In this document: one piece after another, positions 36,885 to 44,913 of the stretch
Layout: every line of letters begins with the position of its first letter
Numbering within the stretch: the first letter of the stretch is position 1
Assembly: GCF_001423885.1 (NCBI RefSeq)
Contig: NZ_LMPP01000001.1
Span: 1,456,134-1,520,133 of the forward strand
Source of the DNA: Rathayibacter sp. Leaf185
GTDB lineage: Bacteria > Actinomycetota > Actinomycetes > Actinomycetales > Microbacteriaceae
Length of the DNA stretch: 64,000 nucleotides
Reading direction: 5' to 3'
The notes under the pieces: model-generated
Seen by the model: only the letters and a program-made list of their open reading frames with translations
Told to the model about the DNA's origin: nothing
Database searches by the model: none
Program-made: the position numbers and the translations under genes

Positions 36885-37714
36885 CCGCCGAGCACACCCT
36901 CCTCGTCGAGGATCTGACCCTCGGCTACGGCGACCGCACCGTCGTCTCCGGCCTCGATCTCGTCGTGCCGCCGGGCCGCATCACCGCGATCGTCGGCTCG
37001 AACGCCTGCGGCAAGTCCACCCTCCTCCGCTCGATGTCGCGCCTGCTGGCCCCGCGCGCGGGCACCGTCCTGCTCGACGGGAAGGCCGTGCACCGCACAC
37101 CCGCGAAGCAGCTCGCGCGCACGCTCGGCCTCCTCCCGCAGTCGCCGATCGCACCGGAGGGAATCACCGTCGCCGATCTCGTCGGCCGCGGACGCCATCC
37201 GCATCAGGGCCTGCTCAGCCGGTGGAGCGCCCACGACGACGAGGCCGTCGCCACCGCGCTCGACGCGACCGACACGGCGGCCCTCGCCGATCGCGCGGTC
37301 GACGAGCTCTCGGGCGGGCAGCGCCAGCGGGTCTGGATCGCGATGGCGCTCGCTCAGGAGACCGATCTGCTGCTGCTCGACGAGCCGACGACGTTCCTCG
37401 ACGTCAGCCACCAGATCGAGGTGCTCGATCTGCTCGTCGACCTCAATCGCACCCGCGGTACGACGGTCGTGATGGTCCTGCACGACCTCAACCTCGCGGC
37501 CCGCTATGCCGACCACCTGGTGGCCCTCGCGGGTGGCGCGGTGCATGCCTCCGGGACCCCCGCCCAGGTGCTCACCGAGGAGACGGTGCTCGCCGTCTTC
37601 GGCCTCGACAGCCGGATCATCACCGACCCGACCTCGGGCACGCCGCTGATGCTGCCCCTCGGCCGCCACCGGCTCGCGGACGACGCGGCGCGCCCGAGCT
37701 CACCCGGAATGTGA
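36881..37714 (+). CDS. Iron-siderophore ABC transporter ATPase (FepC-like)
   Basis: A 277-residue ATPase: Walker A GSNACGKST (39-47), Q-loop in LLPQSP, signature LSGGQRQR, Walker B LLLLDEPTTFLD and switch His in LHDLNLA. Length and the GRGRHPHQG element are typical of the siderophore class (FepC/FhuC). GTG 36881 is coupled to permease 2. A small stem-loop overlaps its stop codon. Confidence 0.95.
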   Translation: MTAEHTLLVEDLTLGYGDRTVVSGLDLVVPPGRITAIVGSNACGKSTLLRSMSRLLAPRAGTVLLDGKAVHRTPAKQLARTLGLLPQSPIAPEGITVADLVGRGRHPHQGLLSRWSAHDDEAVATALDATDTAALADRAVDELSGGQRQRVWIAMALAQETDLLLLDEPTTFLDVSHQIEVLDLLVDLNRTRGTTVVMVLHDLNLAARYADHLVALAGGAVHASGTPAQVLTEETVLAVFGLDSRIITDPTSGTPLMLPLGRHRLADDAARPSSPGM

Positions 37715-37732
37715 CGCTTTCGGGTACATTCC
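37706..37732 (+). terminator. Possible weak terminator after the iron importer
   Basis: GGAATGT (37706-37712) pairs with ACATTCC (37726-37732) around 13 nt, overlapping the ATPase stop codon. It is weaker than other terminators here and could instead be a regulator site at the promoter of the following cassette. A further imperfect repeat GCCTG...CAGGC lies at 37762-37778. Confidence 0.4.
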
Positions 37733-37807
37733 GTCCATAGATCACGATAGCCGCCTGATTAGCCTGGGTATTTCAGGCCCTAAACCGTCGCTCGGCCTCT
37801 TGATAGA

Positions 37808-37832
37808 GAGACACGCTGTCCATTAGTGTCTC
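37808..37832. promoter_or_regulatory. Inverted repeat upstream of the VWA/OmpA cassette
   Basis: GAGACAC (37808-37814) and GTGTCTC (37826-37832) form a perfect 7+7 inverted repeat with an 11-nt centre, 42 nt before the first cassette gene. Flanking TA pairs extend the symmetry. The size and place suit a dimeric regulator; the TetR at 42067 is a candidate. Confidence 0.6.
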
Positions 37833-37873
37833 GATACACCCGGCGCTCCGGTCGGGTCCGAGAGGAGTCTGCG

Positions 37874-37993
37874 ATGAGCCACGTCAGCATCGGTGAACGC
37901 GAGTGGGAGACGACCTGCGGAATCTGCGGGTTCGTCGGCAAGGGGAACGGCCGGAAGCCGAAGGCCTGCCCGGCATGCCAGAGCCAGTGGTGA
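37874..37993 (+). CDS. 39-residue zinc-ribbon protein
   Basis: A tiny gene with AGAGGAG upstream of ATG 37874. The product has two CxxC knuckles (Cys15/Cys18 in TCGICGF and Cys32/Cys35 in ACPACQ) with basic residues between them, giving a rubredoxin-like zinc ribbon. It ends in Trp. Its last 19 nt overlap the next gene in another frame. It is first in a five-gene cassette encoding surface VWA proteins, which suggests a regulatory or chaperone part, not a general one. Function unknown. Confidence 0.72.
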   Translation: MSHVSIGEREWETTCGICGFVGKGNGRKPKACPACQSQW

Positions 37994-38172
37994 CTCCGGA
38001 CGACAGGCGGGTCCTGCAGGCCGTCGAGCTGGTCCAGAGGCTCGAGCGCGATCTCGCCGACGCCGAGCGCGCGGCTCGCGCCTCAGGGAGCCGCACGACC
38101 TCGACCCTCGATCGGCTCCGACGAGACCTGCAGGCCGCCCGCGCCTCTCTCCAGGCGGCCAGGAGGGGGTGA
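37975..38172 (+). CDS. 65-residue coiled-coil protein
   Basis: Starts at ATG 37975 inside the end of the zinc-ribbon gene (19-nt overlap). The product is a charged helical hairpin: LQAVELVQRLERDLADAERA, a short SGSRTTS turn, then LDRLRRDLQAARASLQAAR. It is probably a small dimeric coiled coil that works with the zinc-ribbon or the membrane protein that follows. The frame is open from 37903, but ATG 37975 is the natural coupled start. Not recognised. Confidence 0.62.
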   Translation: MPEPVVTPDDRRVLQAVELVQRLERDLADAERAARASGSRTTSTLDRLRRDLQAARASLQAARRG

Positions 38173-38319
38173 CCGACCGGCGGGCCCCGTCGTGCTCGCC
38201 ACTCCTCCACCCGGACCCGTTCTCCTCGCCCCTCACGGCGACGTGACCAGTCCCGCTCCGAGCACCACCCGCCCCGCCCGAGGGACACGATGCCGAGGGA
38301 ATCGATGCCGAGGAGAACG

Positions 38320-39834
38320 ATGAAGAACCCCCTGAGCCGCACCGGCTCGCCGAGCCGCATCAACGAGACCCGGCAGGCCACCACGACCCTGGCGCAGGAC
38401 CTGCTGCGGGCGAAGGCGAGGGCGACGAGCCCGATGCCGGCCCCGCTGGCCGCTCTGGGGCTCCGGGCGCTCGTGTCCGCCAGGTCCCGCGGCCGTCGCC
38501 GCGCCACGTCTCTCGCCGAGAGCTCCCGGGCGGTCGTCCGTGCCGAGCAGGACCGGCGATCGCGTGTCGCCGCGCTCCGGGCCGGGATCACCAGCACGCA
38601 CTACCGCGCCCGGTACGAGCAGGCGCTCGATGCCGACCGCAGACACGCTTCCGTCGCGCACCTCACCTCCTGGATCCCGGGCTGGGCGGCCTACCTCATC
38701 GCCGCCGCGATGCTCCTCAGCGATCCCCTCTTCCTCCTCACCACGATGCGGACCATCTTCGACGTCTCCGAGAGCCAGTGGCTCCCGACCGACGTGAACG
38801 TCGTCCTCGCCTACGCGATGGCCCTCGGTGTCCCGGCGATCGTCCTGCTGTCGGCGCATCTCGCGGGTCGAGCCTTCGCGGCGCTGCTGTTCCGCGGTGT
38901 TCTCGCGAAGCGCCCCGCCGAGTTCCCGGAGGCGCGCCGGAGCGAGCAGGTGCTCCCCGTGCGTCTCGTGCTGGCACTCGGGGCGCTCGGTCTCGTCCTC
39001 CTGATCGCGACGACCGTTCTGCTCTACCAGCTCGCTCACGAGCGGTTCTCCGGCGGCGTGGCGGGCATCATCAGCGGCACCGGCCCGAGCGCTGCGGCCG
39101 GCGCGGTGACTGCCTACATCACGGCGCTGCCCCTGGCCGTCCTCGTCGTCGAGACGGTGGCGGCCGCACCGTCGTTCGCGCACGCGCGGCACGCTGCGCG
39201 GTGGTCTCGGCAGGCGCGCCGGCTCGAGCGCCGCACCATCCGTCGAGACGAGCGCGACCTCGCCCGGAGCCGCCGCCTCCTGGCGGTGGCCGACACCGCC
39301 GCCGCACAGCTGAGCGACATGATCGCCGACGTCACCGCGCGCGCGCAGTCCGAGGTGATCGAGGCCGAGATCGAGAGCGGGCTCGCCGACTCCGATCCGG
39401 TCGCCCGCTCCCTCGGCATGGCCGGGCCCGGTCGGGAGCCGGCGGTTCCCCAGCGCTCCGGCGCCGACGGGTCGGCCGCAGCAGACGAGGATGCTGCCAA
39501 GGCGCTCGCCGGGGTGCAGCAGCCGACGGCACCGGCCGTCGACGTGACAGAGGTGTCGATCGGTGTCGGCCGGGCGGCGATCGACACCAGCGGCCGGATC
39601 CGCACGGGCGTGCAGGACGTCGCGGTCGACAACCTCGTGGCGCAGGCCTTCGCCCTCTACCGTGCCGTGTCGGCGATACCCGACACCTCGACCGCCGCCG
39701 AGGCCTGGCGTGCGCTCCGCGAGTCGATGGTCCGGCCCGACTCCTCCCGCACTGCCGAACCAGCCCCGGGACCTCAGCGCCTCCACGTCATCGAGCCCGA
39801 CGGCGACGACCTCGTCGAGTCGGCCGCCCGCTGA
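38320..39834 (+). CDS. Four-TM membrane protein of the VWA/OmpA cassette
   Basis: A 504-residue protein. An Arg/Ala-rich cytoplasmic N-terminal part (about 1-115, helical) leads to four membrane helices near 119-140, 160-184, 213-236 and 262-283. Then come a long basic coiled-coil (about 288-355) and a disordered, Ala/Pro-rich tail ending in a small conserved-looking helix. GAGGAG just before ATG 38320 decides the start; ATGs at 38290 and 38305 are in a direct repeat and lack such a site. The layout is that of a membrane scaffold. I recognise no family. Confidence 0.82.
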   Translation: MKNPLSRTGSPSRINETRQATTTLAQDLLRAKARATSPMPAPLAALGLRALVSARSRGRRRATSLAESSRAVVRAEQDRRSRVAALRAGITSTHYRARYEQALDADRRHASVAHLTSWIPGWAAYLIAAAMLLSDPLFLLTTMRTIFDVSESQWLPTDVNVVLAYAMALGVPAIVLLSAHLAGRAFAALLFRGVLAKRPAEFPEARRSEQVLPVRLVLALGALGLVLLIATTVLLYQLAHERFSGGVAGIISGTGPSAAAGAVTAYITALPLAVLVVETVAAAPSFAHARHAARWSRQARRLERRTIRRDERDLARSRRLLAVADTAAAQLSDMIADVTARAQSEVIEAEIESGLADSDPVARSLGMAGPGREPAVPQRSGADGSAAADEDAAKALAGVQQPTAPAVDVTEVSIGVGRAAIDTSGRIRTGVQDVAVDNLVAQAFALYRAVSAIPDTSTAAEAWRALRESMVRPDSSRTAEPAPGPQRLHVIEPDGDDLVESAAR

Positions 39835-39882
39835 CCCCGGACCTCCCGCCCTTCCGCTCCGCCGACTCCAGGAAAGGCCGTC

Positions 39883-41196
39883 GTGCCCACTCCCCGCCCC
39901 CGCAGGCCGGCGCTCAACGCCTCCTTCCTCACCCTCCTCCTCCTCGGCGCGAGCCTCGCCGGCTGCTCGGCGTCGGCGGAGTCGACCAGCGCCGCCGGGG
40001 ACGAGGGAGCCGGCCCCGTCTCCGTGACCGAGCTGGCAGAGGCTCAGAGAGCCGGGTGCGCCGAGGTGCTCGGGGGCCCGGTGGTCGAGAGCGAGCCGCA
40101 GGGCCCGGTGGTCGGTGAGACGGTCGTCGTCGTCGACCGCTCCGCATCGCACGTCCTCACGACGATGCCCGATGAGCTCTCGGAGCAGATCCGCGAGGCG
40201 AGCAGACAGGGCGGGACCATCACTCTCGTCGCCGTCGACGGCGAGGATGTCGAACCGCGGATCCTCCTCAAGGACTCCCCGCTCAGCACGCCCGGCGAGC
40301 GCGACCGGCCGTCCGTCGGCTCGCTCGCCGCATCGATGCCGTCCTGCATCGCCGATGTCATCGCGCGGGAGTCGGCTCCCACGGCGCGGGGCTCCGACCT
40401 CCACCGCGCTCTCGCGCTGGCGAAGGAGCTGGCCGGCGCGTCGGCGACGATGTGGCTCGTCAGCGACCTCGTGTCGACGACGGGTGCCTTCGCGCTCGAC
40501 GATCGGATGCTGGCGTCGAGCGTCGAGGAGGCGAGCGGGCGGATCGCCTCTGTCGCCTCCCTCGATCTCGGCGGAGCGCCCCTGCACATGCTGGGCATCG
40601 GCAACACCTCGACCGCCCTCCGCAGCGGCGACCGCGAGTGGCTGAGGGATCTCGGTCGGCGGCTGTGCGCCGCCTGGAACGCATCGGAGTGCGACGCGAT
40701 CGTCGTGGATCCGGTCAACGCCGAGGCTCCGGACGCGTCGCTGCCGGAGGATCCCCTCCCGGGGTTCCCCGCCGTCGCGACCAGCGCGCTGCCCGGTGGT
40801 GACTGCGAGTTCACGGTCCCGGCGAACCTCGCCTTCAGCGAGGACTCACCGGTCCCTCGCGAGGACGCGGCCGTCGCCCTCGCCGCCCCCCTCGCGCTCG
40901 CCGTCGACTCCGCGGGTGCCACTGTGCAGATCACCGGTCACGCGGCCAGCTCCGCGACCTGGACGCAGGAGGCCCTCGTGACGCTCTCGGAGGACCGCGC
41001 GGACGCGGTCGCCGGGCTCTTCGAAGCCGCCGGTGTGCCCGCGGACCGCGTCATGGCGCGGGGAGTCGGGGACAGCGAACCCCTCGCCGAGGACATCGAC
41101 GCCGCGACGGGTGAGCAGATCCCCGACAGGGCCGCCGCGGAGAGGCGCGTCGACATCGTCGTCGCAGGCGTCGGCGAGGGAGGGTGCGGGCCGTGA
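39883..41196 (+). CDS. Lipoprotein with VWA-like and OmpA-like domains
   Basis: A 437-residue lipoprotein (lipobox LAGC, Cys28). Residues about 80-280 look like a von Willebrand A fold: VVVVDRSAS gives the MIDAS D-x-S-x-S (Asp85, Ser87, Ser89) and VSDLVST the later Asp194. Residues about 308-428 form an OmpA-like peptidoglycan domain (VQITGHAAS, TLSEDRADAVAGLFEAAGV, GVGDSEP, AAERRVDIVV). The Asp that normally follows GHT and binds diaminopimelate is replaced by Ala355, but Arg372 is kept. AGGAAAGG precedes GTG 39883. It would link membrane and cell wall outside the cytoplasm. Next start overlaps its stop. Confidence 0.85.
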   Translation: MPTPRPRRPALNASFLTLLLLGASLAGCSASAESTSAAGDEGAGPVSVTELAEAQRAGCAEVLGGPVVESEPQGPVVGETVVVVDRSASHVLTTMPDELSEQIREASRQGGTITLVAVDGEDVEPRILLKDSPLSTPGERDRPSVGSLAASMPSCIADVIARESAPTARGSDLHRALALAKELAGASATMWLVSDLVSTTGAFALDDRMLASSVEEASGRIASVASLDLGGAPLHMLGIGNTSTALRSGDREWLRDLGRRLCAAWNASECDAIVVDPVNAEAPDASLPEDPLPGFPAVATSALPGGDCEFTVPANLAFSEDSPVPREDAAVALAAPLALAVDSAGATVQITGHAASSATWTQEALVTLSEDRADAVAGLFEAAGVPADRVMARGVGDSEPLAEDIDAATGEQIPDRAAAERRVDIVVAGVGEGGCGP

Positions 41197-41951
41197 CCGC
41201 TCCCTTGACCACCGCGAGCAGGGCGCTGCCGCCCCTCCGGTCGCCCGTCCCTCTCCGGGCTCCGCGCCGCCCGCCCTGGTGGCTCGCACTCCTGCTGATC
41301 CCGCTGATCGGCGCCGCCCTGCTCACGTGGGCGCTCGCCGACCGCCCGACCGAGATCGCCGAGGTCGCCCTGGTCGGTCCGAGGGCGCCTGTGCCGCTGG
41401 ACGTCGTGCTGCTCCTGGACGAATCGGGGAGCTTCAGCGGGTACTCCGATGTCCGCACCGCGGCCATCGACCAGATCTTCGAGTGGGCGCCGGAGAATCT
41501 CCGCGCCGACGACACCGTCACGATCATCGCCTTCGCCGAGGACGCCGTCCTCCGCCTCCCCCCGACGCCCGTGTCCGAGCTCGACTCCGGGATGCTCCTG
41601 ACCTCTTCTGCACCGGTCCCGGACGGCACGGCCATCCAGCCGGCGTTCCGCACCGCGGTCGACGTGCTCGGCGAGCCGACGAGCCCCCGCACGGTCATCG
41701 CCGTCACCGACACCATCGTGGGCGATGCCGACGCGGCGCGCCTGGGCGAACTGGTGTCCAGACTCGGCGCGACGACGGCATCGGTGATCGTCCCCAGCGG
41801 AGTCGCGGTCGACCCCGCCTGGGAGGCCGCGCTGGACTGGGAGGCGGAGTTCTCCGCGGACGCGCTCTCGGCCGACGCGACCGGTCTCGCCGTGGCCGAC
41901 GCTCTCTCGCACGCCACGGGTCAGACTCTCGAGCGGTCCTCCGGCCGGTGA
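41193..41951 (+). CDS. Membrane-anchored VWA domain protein
   Basis: A 252-residue protein with one membrane helix at about 29-49 and a VWA domain outside. The metal site is complete: DESGS (Asp76, Ser78, Ser80), Thr146 in PDGTAI and Asp173 in VTDTIVG. VWA domains bind partner proteins through a Mg ion. GTG 41193 overlaps the OmpA-VWA stop (GTGA); GTG 41184 is an alternative. Paired with the previous lipoprotein it suggests a surface adhesion or sensing complex. Function unknown. Confidence 0.87.
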   Translation: MTAPLTTASRALPPLRSPVPLRAPRRPPWWLALLLIPLIGAALLTWALADRPTEIAEVALVGPRAPVPLDVVLLLDESGSFSGYSDVRTAAIDQIFEWAPENLRADDTVTIIAFAEDAVLRLPPTPVSELDSGMLLTSSAPVPDGTAIQPAFRTAVDVLGEPTSPRTVIAVTDTIVGDADAARLGELVSRLGATTASVIVPSGVAVDPAWEAALDWEAEFSADALSADATGLAVADALSHATGQTLERSSGR

Positions 41952-42066
41952 GTCCCTCACCCACCCGGCCGCGGGCCGCGTCCGGCCGGCCGACGCCCAG
42001 GACGATCGGCGCCACCGCCGCACGATTCCGGATCGGCCGCGCGTCGTCCGCCGTAAGCTGTTCCGA

Positions 42067-42870
42067 ATGGAACCAGAGCCCTCCGGCGGAGTGAAGCCCC
42101 GCGCGCGTCGAACATCTCCGGAGACCACGAAGCGGCTGATCCTCGACGAGGCCAAGGCGCGCATCGCAGCCGAGGGAGGCATCACCCTCAGCTTCGAGCA
42201 CATCCCGCTCGAGAGCTACATCAAGGCCGCCGGAGCGCCGCGGAGCTCGGTCTACCGGATCTGGAAGTCCCACGCGGCCTTCGTCGCCGACCTCATCCAG
42301 GACCTCTTCGAGGGCGGCGACTTCGCCCGCGGATTCGATCCGTCCACGCGCCACGCGATCGAGGCGGTGCTGCGCGAGCACGTCGGGCTGATCCGGGGGA
42401 CGAGTGAGGAGCGCCGCGCTCTGATGCGGGAGATGGTCCGCGTCGGCGTCTCCGCCAATCTCCGGGCGGCCTCCGCGTCGGAGTTCCGCCGCTCGTACTG
42501 GACGCTCGCCTCCGCCGTGCCGAGCATCGCGCCCGGTCCGGCGCGCGAGACGGCGGTCGCGACCGTCACGCGGATCGAGGCCTCGTTCCTCTCGGCGATG
42601 TCGTCGTTCTACGAGACCGTTCTCGGCCTGATCGGGCTCCGGCTCCGGGAGCCGTTCACCCCGCGCCACATCGCCGTCCTGACCAATTCGATCGTCGACG
42701 CCTTCACCCGGCGGTTCGAACTCGACCGAGGCATCGTCGAGACCGTCTTCGAGGGCCCGGCGCTCGGGGGAGGCTCCGCCGAGTGGACCTTCGCCGCCTG
42801 GTCGATCGCGAGCGCTGTCGACGGCATGACCGAGAGCTACGCCCCCACCTCCGGCGACGCCGCCGGGTGA
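42067..42870 (+). CDS. TetR-like transcriptional regulator
   Basis: A 267-residue TetR-type regulator: an N-terminal HTH with TTKRLILDEAKARIAAEGG and IPLESYIKAAGAPRSSVYRIWKSHAAF (the YR-x-W-K-S recognition end), then a large helical domain. The HTH insert LSFEHIPLESY is longer than usual. TAAGCT (42054-42059) is 7 nt before ATG 42067, so the gene probably has its own leaderless promoter separate from the VWA cassette 115 nt upstream. It may regulate that cassette. Confidence 0.88.
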   Translation: MEPEPSGGVKPRARRTSPETTKRLILDEAKARIAAEGGITLSFEHIPLESYIKAAGAPRSSVYRIWKSHAAFVADLIQDLFEGGDFARGFDPSTRHAIEAVLREHVGLIRGTSEERRALMREMVRVGVSANLRAASASEFRRSYWTLASAVPSIAPGPARETAVATVTRIEASFLSAMSSFYETVLGLIGLRLREPFTPRHIAVLTNSIVDAFTRRFELDRGIVETVFEGPALGGGSAEWTFAAWSIASAVDGMTESYAPTSGDAAG

Positions 42871-42898
42871 TCGCGTCGTCCGGGTCGGGCCGGGGCGC

Positions 42899-43687
42899 TC
42901 AGCGCCTCCCCACTCGGTCGGCGATGGCGAACGGAGCCCGGCCGACGAGGTGGCCCAGCGCCACGCCGGCCATTCCGATCGCCTGCCCCCACTCCGGTTG
43001 CACGAGCAGCGGCTGACCGAGGGCCGAGCTCGTCTGCAGGAACAGCGGCAGCGCGACCGCGAGAACGGCGACCGCCAGGGTTGCGAGGAACACCGTCAGC
43101 TTCGGCGCGAGGCCGATGAGGAGGCCGAGGGCTCCGGCGCAGGCCGTCCCGACGACGACGGCCTCGGGACTCATCGGTGCGGAGCCCAGGGGGAGTCCGA
43201 AGGGCGAGAGGAGGAAGTCGAGCAGTGCCACGCCGCCGAGGAGGGCCGCTCCGTCGACCCGCGGGAGTCGCAGCCGGAAGGTGCTGAGGGCCAGACCGGC
43301 CGCGAGTGCACCGAGGTGCAGGAGGAGCGCCACCGAGACCTCCCAGCCGCCGCCGAACCGCGTGACGAGGATGCCGGCCGTGACGACGAACGCGACGAAA
43401 GACAGGGCCGCATCGCGGATCGGGAGGAACATCCCGAACGTCAGGGCGCCGCACAGCATGCCGAACGCGGCTCCGAGCCAGAACACGGCCGCCCCGGTCG
43501 TGGCGGGCACGGCGGCGTCGAGCAGGCCCAGAGCGCCCGCGAGCACGAGCACGGGCTTGCTCGCGAGCGCGAGCGACTCGGGGTCTCGGTAGCGGCCGCG
43601 TCGGCTGATCAGCCGGAACGACCCGACGACCGCCGCGGTCACGATCGCGAGCAGGACGACGGCCGGGACCGTGTCGGATCCGGTCAT
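42899..43687 (-). CDS. Integral membrane protein, unknown function
   Basis: A 262-residue hydrophobic protein with about eight membrane helices and short Arg-rich loops; no transport signature is visible. GAGGAG precedes ATG 43687. It lies downstream of the acyltransferase candidate on the same strand with 152 nt between them, which contain an inverted repeat (43758-43780) and likely its own promoter. It could handle the acyl product, which is inference only. Confidence 0.8.
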   Translation of the reverse strand: MTGSDTVPAVVLLAIVTAAVVGSFRLISRRGRYRDPESLALASKPVLVLAGALGLLDAAVPATTGAAVFWLGAAFGMLCGALTFGMFLPIRDAALSFVAFVVTAGILVTRFGGGWEVSVALLLHLGALAAGLALSTFRLRLPRVDGAALLGGVALLDFLLSPFGLPLGSAPMSPEAVVVGTACAGALGLLIGLAPKLTVFLATLAVAVLAVALPLFLQTSSALGQPLLVQPEWGQAIGMAGVALGHLVGRAPFAIADRVGRR

Positions 43688-43757
43688 CGAGGACTCCTCA
43701 TTCTCTGTCCGTCCGGGGGTCGGAGCACCGCCGTTCGCGCGGTCGCAGCGGACCTCC

Positions 43758-43780
43758 GGACACTTATGTACATCATGTCC
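43758..43780. promoter_or_regulatory. GGACA...TGTCC inverted repeat before the membrane protein gene
   Basis: GGACA at 43758-43762 and TGTCC at 43776-43780 flank a palindromic ATGTACAT core. The two symmetries are half a base out of register, so as a duplex operator it is imperfect. It is AT-rich for this genome and lies 71 nt before the start of the membrane protein gene. Confidence 0.5.
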
Positions 43781-43839
43781 ATATATGCGCCTGGCGCACT
43801 ACTGCGAGCGGCCCGAGGCCGTGCCGCTCGCAGGGGCGT

Positions 43840-44538
43840 CTACCCGTAGAGCACCGGGTCCGTGGACGCCGCACCGACGTCGGCGAGCACCGCCCGGCGG
43901 ATCAGCACCGGCACCTTCGGCGTCGGGTACTCGAGCATCCGCGCCGGGCTGAGCTCCTCGAGAGGCAGGAACCGGCGCATCGGCCGGACCAGTTCGTCGC
44001 CGAGCATCGCGTAGGCGTCTCCGCCGGCGGCGGCCGTGGACACGCCGGCGGTGAACGCGACCAGTGCCGCGAGCATCCGCAGGCGGAGCGCGCCGCTGTC
44101 CGCGACGATGCACAGCCGGCTGACCTCGACGCTGTCCGACGGGAGCGGAGCGTCGAAGAGATCACCGAAGTGCCCCTCGGTCTCGATGGGGAGCGGCAGC
44201 TCGATCGTGCCGCTGTCGTCGAGGATCGTCCGGAAGATGAGGCGGACTCCGCCCGCGACCCGGGCGAGGCCTCCGCCGATGTTCTCGACGACGGCGATCG
44301 CGCACGCACGGTCCTCGTCGGCATCGCGCTCCGGTCCTCGGAGCAGGCCTCGCCCGACGAACACGAGCTCGCGGACAGCGGAGCTCCGTGCGTGCACCTC
44401 CTCGCGCCGGGGGAGGGCCGCGCCTCCGCGGGCCGCGACGAGCACGGCGAAGCGGCTCGCCGGGCTGGTCTCGAAGACATCGCTCTCGAACGCGGCGTCG
44501 GCGAGGGTGGACGGGTGGGCGTGGTGTCGGGCGGACAT
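43840..44538 (-). CDS. LuxI/FeeM-like acyltransferase candidate (GNAT fold)
   Basis: A 232-residue protein that fits the acyl-ACP-dependent N-acyltransferase pattern: REEVHARSSAVRELVFV like the R-x-x-V-F helix of autoinducer synthases, an acidic stretch (DADED), AGGVRLIF (Arg99), ELPLPIE and EVSRLCIV (Glu138, Ser140, Arg141). These occur in LuxI and in FeeM/N-acyl amino acid synthases. GAGAGGAG sets ATG 44538 (GTG 44544 is possible). It would make an N-acyl amine or signal lipid. The family call is my pattern reading and needs a profile search. Confidence 0.6.
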   Translation of the reverse strand: MSARHHAHPSTLADAAFESDVFETSPASRFAVLVAARGGAALPRREEVHARSSAVRELVFVGRGLLRGPERDADEDRACAIAVVENIGGGLARVAGGVRLIFRTILDDSGTIELPLPIETEGHFGDLFDAPLPSDSVEVSRLCIVADSGALRLRMLAALVAFTAGVSTAAAGGDAYAMLGDELVRPMRRFLPLEELSPARMLEYPTPKVPVLIRRAVLADVGAASTDPVLYG

Positions 44539-44544
44539 CGACAC

Positions 44545-44913
44545 TCCTCTCGAAGGTGGTGTCCGCTACACCGGTCCCGACCGTGGGCGCCGGCGCCGCA
44601 CTCCTCCGATCCGCTCCCGCCGTCGTCGGGCGCGGGTCCGCCGTCGTCGGCTCCGATGCGGAACCGACGTCGAGGGAGGTCCGGGCGTCCGCCGCTGGGC
44701 AGAGGCCGATCGGGGCGGGGCGGCCGACAGCTCGCCCTCGGTGATCCCGGCCTGTGGCGCGGAACAGCGCTCCCGACGGCGCGTAGATGTCCGACGTGTA
44801 AACGGTTCCAGGAGGCGCCCGCGGGGCCGATACGATACCTTCCAGTCCTCGGCGGACGGCCGCCACCGGCGGATCCCGCCGCACCCGAGCCCCGATCCGA
44901 GAGCCTCCCCGCC
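44545..44913. other. Intergenic region before the HAD-GH65 operon
   Basis: No gene is visible in 369 nt between divergent genes. TACGAT at 44828-44833 could be the -10 of the HAD-GH65 operon. TGTAAACGGTTCCA (44797-44810) resembles half of a LacI-type operator, with a poor second half. No hairpin of note. Confidence 0.4.

What the first reader, a model, noticed from the sequence alone, without database searches (positions are those of the whole stretch)
37874..41951. Candidate undescribed surface system: zinc ribbon, coiled-coil, four-TM scaffold, VWA-OmpA lipoprotein, VWA protein
Five genes in one direction: two tiny overlapping cytoplasmic proteins, a four-helix membrane protein with a long coiled coil, a lipoprotein joining a MIDAS-bearing VWA domain to an OmpA-like wall-binding domain, and a membrane-anchored VWA protein with a complete metal site. 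The last two overlap by GTGA. Domain facts are seen in sequence; that they form one complex spanning membrane and wall is inference. OmpA domains and paired VWA domains are unusual in a monoderm actinobacterium, and I know no named system with this gene order.
Basis: partly seen in the sequence, partly recalled or inferred. Interest (0 to 1): 0.78.

Follow-up and report, generated by a model that had tools for sequence, protein, structure and literature searches.

The report
Mobile wall-anchored envelope sensor module
Three adjacent genes in an actinobacterium, sitting in a stretch that four close relatives lack at that site and kept in the same order in two other genomes, encode a predicted four-helix membrane protein, a predicted lipoprotein with a cell-wall-binding-type (OmpA) domain and a second predicted surface protein, which would together form a wall-anchored complex that likely senses attack on the cell envelope.

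Summary
The window holds a real three-gene operon (C-D-E, 38320-41951) rather than a five-gene system. C is a predicted 4-TM protein with long cytoplasmic helices; D a predicted lipoprotein joining a MIDAS-bearing VWA-like domain to an OmpA domain; E a predicted membrane-anchored VWA protein. C-D-E stand in this order in all three close loci I could read (window, Cellulomonas chitinilytica, genome G006). The two small upstream genes have no significant match there, and the second (B) has no coding signal. The operon lies in a ~7.1-kb stretch absent at that site from four of four relatives read; one of them, G006, has a diverged copy elsewhere. Full-length D is rare (own and one other of 40 relatives; own only of 398 family genomes). 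A wider actinobacterial family of D-type proteins pairs with multi-TM genes, beside changing partners (CHAT, kinase, Crp-like, FHA-FtsK, GmrSD). No library I searched names C or the set as a system. Layout resembles Zorya's ZorAB, but C matches no MotA/ZorA model and D has a lipobox instead of a motor helix. Best reading: a mobile wall-anchored envelope sensor, probably in conflict or defence. Anatomy is well supported; function is inferred and untested.

The parts
37678..44754 (.). ~7.1-kb accessory stretch; flanks lie next to each other, or 0.9-1.1 kb apart, in four same-genus genomes (approximate ends; right end 44755-44793 depending on the relative)
   Evidence: blastn of window against L077-L080; no convincing flanking repeats
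37874..37993 (+). A: 39-aa four-cysteine (CxxC...CxxC) zinc-ribbon-like protein; membership uncertain
   Evidence: PF23470 9.4e-5, below cut-off; weak codon signal; no significant match in L003 or G006
37975..38172 (+). B: possible 65-aa helical protein overlapping A by 19 nt; doubtful gene
   Evidence: codon log-odds -1.9; not chosen by the gene caller; no significant match in relatives
38320..39834 (+). C: predicted 4-TM membrane protein, predicted cytoplasmic N and C termini, long helices 41-90 and 284-352 (upstream ATG at 38290 also possible)
   Evidence: model of low confidence, pLDDT 57.8; counterparts in L003 and L023; remote similarity to the 4-TM proteins of L028/L060/L088 as a group
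39883..41196 (+). D: predicted lipoprotein (Cys28), VWA-like domain ~79-264 with MIDAS D85/S87/S89, S171, D195, then OmpA domain ~297-431
41193..41951 (+). E: predicted single-pass N-in protein with extracytoplasmic VWA domain, MIDAS D76/S78/S80, T146, D173; GTGA overlap with D (upstream GTG at 41184 also possible)
42067..42870 (+). TetR-like regulator (weak NCBIfam match only) inside the insert; role in the module unproven
   Evidence: E 0.0096, below cut-off; this genome has two homologues at E<=1e-30, each of the other 14 genus genomes one, at 34-39% identity; inside the insert

Best explanation
C-D-E is a likely horizontally gained operon for a predicted envelope-spanning complex: C is predicted to sit in the membrane with long cytoplasmic helices, D is predicted to be lipid-anchored and would hold the wall through its OmpA domain, and E would present a second MIDAS-type VWA domain outside the membrane; together they likely sense disturbance of the wall or surface, such as phage entry, and relay it inward. 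Steps: (1) Shown: three genes in conserved order with short gaps or overlaps, sparse distribution, and a stretch absent at this site from four relatives. (2) Predicted from sequence and model: topology, lipid anchor, OmpA fold, metal-site residues in E and D; six further cysteines are invariant in close D proteins, which suggests disulfides. (3) Inferred: D grips peptidoglycan or another wall polymer while its VWA-like domain binds E or an outside ligand; wall damage or ligand binding shifts the D-E contact, and C transmits this to its cytoplasmic helices. (4) Inferred: C then engages a cytoplasmic partner. Related loci offer several (CHAT protease-like proteins, a kinase, an FHA-FtsK protein, unassigned proteins of 400-830 aa). 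In this window no obvious effector lies in the insert; zinc-ribbon protein A or a protein encoded elsewhere would have to serve. A defence or conflict role is the most likely use because the module is rare, sits in inserts or islands and changes partners.
Against: No effector is recognisable in the window's insert. PADLOC gives A, B, E and the TetR-like gene no match, C and D only weak ones (Cas5 0.0059; ZorB3 0.014 through the OmpA part), and no match to 13 other neighbours in L003, L023, L028, L060 and L061. Some related loci sit beside ordinary metabolic genes (for example L088, L091, L094). The OmpA aspartate that binds DAP in Acinetobacter OmpA is Ala in 11 of 11 close D, so classical DAP binding is doubtful. 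E is found in only 4 of 15 D loci. No physical interaction was tested; the C model is of low confidence. Neighbour domains were scanned for chosen genes only and not counted against matched background loci.
Confidence: 0.42

Rival explanations
1. Surface adhesion or display module: the two MIDAS VWA domains bind an outside ligand (surface, neighbour cell, metal-dependent polymer), D holds the complex on the wall and C is only a scaffold.
For: MIDAS residues in E and D; VWA domains commonly bind proteins or matrix (recalled); extracytoplasmic placement predicted.
Against: C devotes about 120 N-terminal and 200-230 C-terminal residues to the predicted cytoplasmic side, more than a scaffold needs; relatives lie beside genes for CHAT, kinase, Crp-like and FHA-FtsK proteins; 6 of 6 distant relatives P0015-P0020 have lost the MIDAS residues while keeping the two-domain layout.
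Confidence: 0.2
2. Wall-maintenance module: an accessory Tol-Pal-like link between membrane and wall that stabilises the envelope during growth or division, without a conflict role.
For: OmpA/Pal-type fold; the Rhodococcus E homologue is next to a CHAP-domain gene.
Against: Very sparse, insert- or island-borne distribution is unlike a maintenance function; C has no MotA/TolQ/ExbB match.
Confidence: 0.18
3. Part of the transfer or exclusion machinery of a mobile element (conjugation, surface exclusion) rather than a host-protective device.
For: G006 copy in an island, E homologue on a conjugative plasmid; one close D relative (P0010) carries a plasmid label in its source name; in L094 the 713-aa neighbour matches TrwB_AAD_bind just over its cut-off (21.4 vs 20.5 bits, among other ATPase matches); the L028 D-type protein has a sub-cut-off TrbK match (E 0.031).
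Against: No relaxase or T4SS gene was recognised by Pfam among the neighbours scanned in the window or in L003; no hit for window C or D in 72,556 plasmid records, and none for the D or C profile in viral contigs.
Confidence: 0.1
4. Hitchhikers: genes of separate function kept together by chance or by joint transfer.
For: The wider family changes its partners, and E is missing from most distant D loci: an E-profile hit in 4 of 15 D loci; E occurs on a Rhodococcus plasmid stretch in which no C or D was found.
Against: C-D-E order, gaps and overlaps conserved at about 35-53% protein identity in three genomes; D with a multi-TM neighbour across the class.
Confidence: 0.07

Closest known systems
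Zorya anti-phage system (ZorA/ZorB core)
   Same: Multi-TM membrane protein with long cytoplasmic helices paired with an OmpA-type peptidoglycan-binding protein; in the Zorya paper the ZorA tail and ZorB wall binding are needed for defence (PMC11890865, passages including part of the abstract).
   Different: C matches no MotA/ExbB or ZorA model; D has a lipobox and an added VWA-like domain where ZorB has a motor helix; no ZorC/D/E match among A-E and the TetR-like gene; E has no counterpart. PADLOC ZorB3 touches D only through the OmpA part (E 0.014).
iSTAND MoxR-vWA ternary conflict systems (Kaur et al. 2020, PMC7159879)
   Same: vWA domains, OmpA domains typically preceded by TM segments in some members, changing effectors, inferred membrane-proximal role (passages).
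   Different: No MoxR AAA+ or STAND NTPase recognised in the insert; here a VWA-like and an OmpA domain are in one lipoprotein next to a 4-TM protein.
Tol-Pal / Pal-type lipoproteins
   Same: Predicted lipid-anchored OmpA-domain protein.
   Different: No TolQ/TolR/TolB match; VWA-like domain added; below the cut-off of every NCBIfam model listed.
BatA/BatB aerotolerance VWA proteins
   Same: The E profile's best match among solved structures is BatB (E 0.0019).
   Different: No MoxR-BatA-BatB operon recognised; E is paired with D.
Rv0899/OmpATb of Mycobacterium tuberculosis
   Same: Actinobacterial membrane protein with an OmpA domain (matched by the D profile).
   Different: No VWA-like domain or C/E partners (recalled).

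Membership tests
OmpA domain (PF00691) | score over curated cut-off and OmpA fold | tested here: met
OmpA domain (PF00691) | DAP-binding Asp/Arg pair (Asp271/Arg286 in Acinetobacter OmpA, PMC7901484, passages) | tested here: not met
   Arg kept in 21 of 21; Asp replaced by Ala in 11 of 11 close D and 6 of 6 of P0015-P0020, present in 4 of 4 of L028/P0012-P0014; by alignment only
VWA domain | profile match and MIDAS in E | tested here: met
   VWA_2 34.4 bits vs 27; DESGS, T146, D173 invariant in 3 of 3
VWA domain | profile match and fold for D residues 79-264 | tested here: inconclusive
   No Pfam match in window D, weak VWA_2 in relative L060 (0.0012, below cut-off) and none in five other D-type proteins scanned; MIDAS complete in 9 of 11 close D; predicted strand/helix order fits VWA; the fold lists shown are filled by the OmpA domain; no profile similarity to E
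Zorya | ZorA: MotA/TolQ/ExbB-type proton channel | tested here: not met
   no Pfam MotA/ExbB and no PADLOC ZorA match at E<=1 for C; by sequence only, the C model is too weak for fold tests
Zorya | ZorB: TM helix plus OmpA domain | tested here: not met
   D has a lipobox signal peptide; two further mildly hydrophobic stretches (221-239, 330-348) fall inside the folded domains of the model
Zorya | ZorC/ZorD or ZorE effector genes adjacent | tested here: not met
   PADLOC on A-E and the TetR-like gene found none; 42899-43687 and 43840-44538 were not run through PADLOC
MoxR-vWA ternary (iSTAND) systems | adjacent MoxR AAA+ and iSTAND NTPase | tested here: not met
   7 of 8 ORFs of the insert scanned with Pfam, no P-loop ATPase; 42899-43687 not scanned
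Tol-Pal | TolQ/TolR/TolB partners | tested here: not met
   no such match for A-E

The most novel reading that the evidence does not exclude
A previously undescribed family of actinobacterial conflict systems is built around a wall-gripping VWA-OmpA lipoprotein and a 4-TM relay protein: an outside-facing sensor that works without a MotA-type motor and is plugged into interchangeable cytoplasmic effectors (CHAT proteases, kinases, cyclic-nucleotide regulators, STAND-like and FtsK-like ATPases), with C-D-E as a compact mobile version.
Probability: 0.3. Interest if true: 0.78.

Novelty: new variant of a known kind. Interest (0 to 1): 0.55.

Why it matters
If right, it would show how monoderm bacteria couple wall or surface disturbance to cytoplasmic effectors without an ion-driven motor, and would give boundaries to a set of hypothetical genes spread over Actinomycetes. 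The pairing rule (a D-type lipoprotein next to a multi-TM protein) makes the family searchable, and the compact three-gene version is small enough to move into a laboratory strain for a direct test.

Tried and rejected
Searches with no match for the module: plasmids with D, C, P0010 and the G006 C; viral contigs with the D and C profiles; phages with D gave only a weak match through the OmpA part; the C protein search over 5.8 billion sequences returned only itself among the 7997 candidates scored. The genome-contig scan gave one real relative (L003); L004 (Comamonas) matched the OmpA part only and was dropped. L029 (G423, OmpA part only) and the OmpA-only hits were dropped from the locus counts. 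Homology of D's VWA-like domain to E by profile was not seen. C against distant 4-TM neighbours: supported for the L028/L060/L088 group; the L089/L090 group is not matched directly (0.18) but matches that group; as single sequences only L028 and L060 score clearly better than the null; L059, L061 and L091-L094 share topology at most. Fold search with the low-confidence C model gave nothing at E<=0.001 and is not used as evidence of a new fold. VWA folds are absent from the rows shown for D, which the OmpA domain fills. Flanking repeats at the insert: only short chance-like ones. Literature: searches found no description of this gene set; PMC12419801 (passages) was unrelated.
Full report
Observation. 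C, D and E have strong codon signal in their own frame only; A is weak and B is negative, and my gene caller leaves B out. D carries a lipobox and an OmpA domain over the Pfam cut-off; E carries VWA_2 over the cut-off; C has no match in Pfam or NCBIfam at E<=1 and only a weak Cas5 match in PADLOC (0.0059) that I take as chance. The claim that OmpA domains are unusual in such organisms does not hold: 14 of 40 genomes, the own included, match the D profile at E<=0.001, 12 of them through the OmpA part only, and the own genome has two matches to the Pfam OmpA model over its cut-off.

Close relatives. The protein search with D gave eight further relatives at 40-47% identity, among them Rathayibacter, Microbacterium and an Arthrobacter protein labelled as plasmid-borne. 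I could read the surroundings of two close copies: L003, Cellulomonas chitinilytica, and G006, a genome of the same genus. Both carry C, D and E in the same order, with D-E start/stop overlaps; tblastn identities to the window are 35-38% for C, 46-48% for D and 48-53% for E. A and B find no significant match at either place. L003 and G006 instead share another small Cys-bearing protein upstream of C, and two small proteins elsewhere. The neighbourhoods of P0003-P0010 could not be reached.

How rare. Full-length D: own and G006 of 40 genomes; own only of 398 family genomes at E<=1e-30 (G006 cannot have been in that draw); own plus one distant full-length copy (G464) and one OmpA-part match (G423) of 396 order genomes at E<=1e-20; 0 of 295 genomes of another genus of the family at E<=1e-40, a draw without a positive control. 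With the broader profile, 22 of 396 phylum genomes match at E<=1e-18, but only four genomes (five places) over the full length; of 394 class genomes 11 match at E<=1e-30, 12 places, each over most of the length. The phylum and class draws overlap.

An insert. In four same-genus loci fetched (L077-L080, of 15 genomes searched), the ABC ATPase gene that precedes A in the window is followed by the HAD-type gene that comes after the insert, at 92 bp in one and after 0.9-1.1 kb of other DNA in three; identity is 89-94% on both sides. Window homology stops at 37677 and resumes at 44755-44793. G006 is one of these four: it lacks the module here and has its own copy elsewhere. The ~7.1-kb stretch holds A-E, a TetR-like gene, a membrane protein found at E<=1e-30 only in the own genome of 15 and one more ORF. 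For the TetR-like gene the own genome has two homologues and the other 14 one each, at 34-39% identity. No convincing flanking repeats were seen. The G006 copy lies in a ~20-kb stretch of 60-67% G+C with 72-79% on either side, with an ImmA/IrrE-HTH protein.

The wider family. I examined 15 D-type loci (window, L003, L023, L028, L059-L062, L088-L094). In 12 of 15 an immediate same-strand neighbour has at least three predicted TM segments, against 30 of 222 other genes (p 7e-8). One of the 12 (L062) is only 142 aa and not C-like. Of the other three, L061 has a 4-TM gene one gene away, L089's neighbour has four segments at a lower threshold, and L093 has a 4-TM gene two genes away with an E-like gene between. 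The close C profile matches the L028/L060/L088 4-TM group (E 3.8e-6, 181 columns) where the best of 34 unrelated multi-TM proteins, compared as single sequences, reaches 0.025; that group matches L089/L090 at 5e-20, while the direct comparison of close C with L089/L090 does not (0.18). For the remaining loci only topology is shared. An E profile finds the three E proteins, L093 (8.9e-5) and a Rhodococcus ruber conjugative plasmid (3.2e-30), and no other ORF of at least 80 aa in the 16 loci searched.

Partners. Among the neighbours scanned with Pfam (chosen genes, not all): CHAT proteins in L059 (two) and L061; Ser/Thr kinases in L059 and L091, a Cdc48-type AAA and a radical SAM protein in L059; Crp-like cyclic-nucleotide regulators in L060, L088 and L089; a marginal nSTAND3 match in L060, below its cut-off; an FHA-FtsK protein, a P-loop ATPase with a TrwB_AAD_bind match just over its cut-off, an HNH protein and a melibiase in L094; GmrSD with a RAMA domain in L028; a DEAD helicase near L003. 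Two unassigned proteins of the G006 island match two of the own genome's second D locus, L061. On the Rhodococcus plasmid the E gene follows a CHAP-domain gene, ~9 kb from a CHAT gene. Of the 15 non-C, non-E proteins of relatives given to PADLOC, it matches the L003 helicase (generic helicase relatives) and the L028 GmrSD protein; 13 have no match. Changing partners, sparse spread and inserts are what conflict systems show (Kaur et al. 2020, passages); this is an argument by analogy, and the partner genes were not counted against matched background loci.

Mechanism. I favour a wall-anchored sensor: D holds the wall, D and E carry metal-site domains outside, and C relays to the cytoplasm. Layout and logic resemble ZorA/ZorB (PMC11890865, passages), but the channel and motor features that define it were tested by sequence and not met, so it is not filed as Zorya. 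Complex formation, wall binding, the stimulus and the effector are all untested. Adhesion is the main rival.

Noticed in passing
L061 (own genome, G000:C1:1287000-1306900): A second, divergent D-type locus in the same genome: CHAT-containing 994-aa protein, 4-TM 520-aa protein, Cys-rich 60-aa protein, D-type lipoprotein, and three unassigned proteins (603, 427, 404 aa); the D-type gene is found at E<=1e-20 only in the own genome of 15 in the genus.
   Followed up: partly
L060, L088, L089, L090: These loci share an apparent operon: Crp-like cyclic-nucleotide regulator (not called in L090), ~250-aa unassigned protein (not seen as such in L088), ~715-830-aa unassigned protein, ~300-350-aa unassigned protein (called shorter in L088), D-type lipoprotein, multi-TM protein.
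   Followed up: partly
L095 (Rhodococcus ruber pYYL1.1, NZ_CP024892.1): An E homologue sits between a CHAP-domain gene and IS256 elements on a conjugative plasmid, with a CHAT gene ~9 kb away and no C or D match in the stretch.
   Followed up: partly
window 39883-41196 and A6 alignment: OmpA Asp-to-Ala change in all 11 close D proteins while the Arg is kept; may reflect walls without DAP, but the Lentzea relatives P0015 and P0016 also have Ala, so the link is not clean.
   Followed up: partly
window A; L003:7956-8351; L061:11069-11251; N termini of 4-TM proteins in L028, L060, L088: Small Cys-rich (zinc-finger-like) elements recur beside, or at the N terminus of, the 4-TM protein; L091, L092 and L094 have one or no Cys in the first 130 residues; no homology shown between the elements, except L003 with G006.
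   Followed up: partly
L079 (G006:C1:217000-229000) 2178-2860: The spot that holds the insert in the window holds other DNA in G006, by eye a HicA/HicB-like small gene pair: a variable site.
   Followed up: no
window 43840-44538 (-): 232-aa protein at the end of the insert, only a marginal GNAT-like match (PF13444, E 0.14).
   Followed up: no
L023/L024 (G006 island): Island ORF of 1397 aa with, by eye, a Lon-like and a WD40-like part around a TM segment, beside lipoprotein genes; read across two adjoining pieces and not searched further.
   Followed up: no
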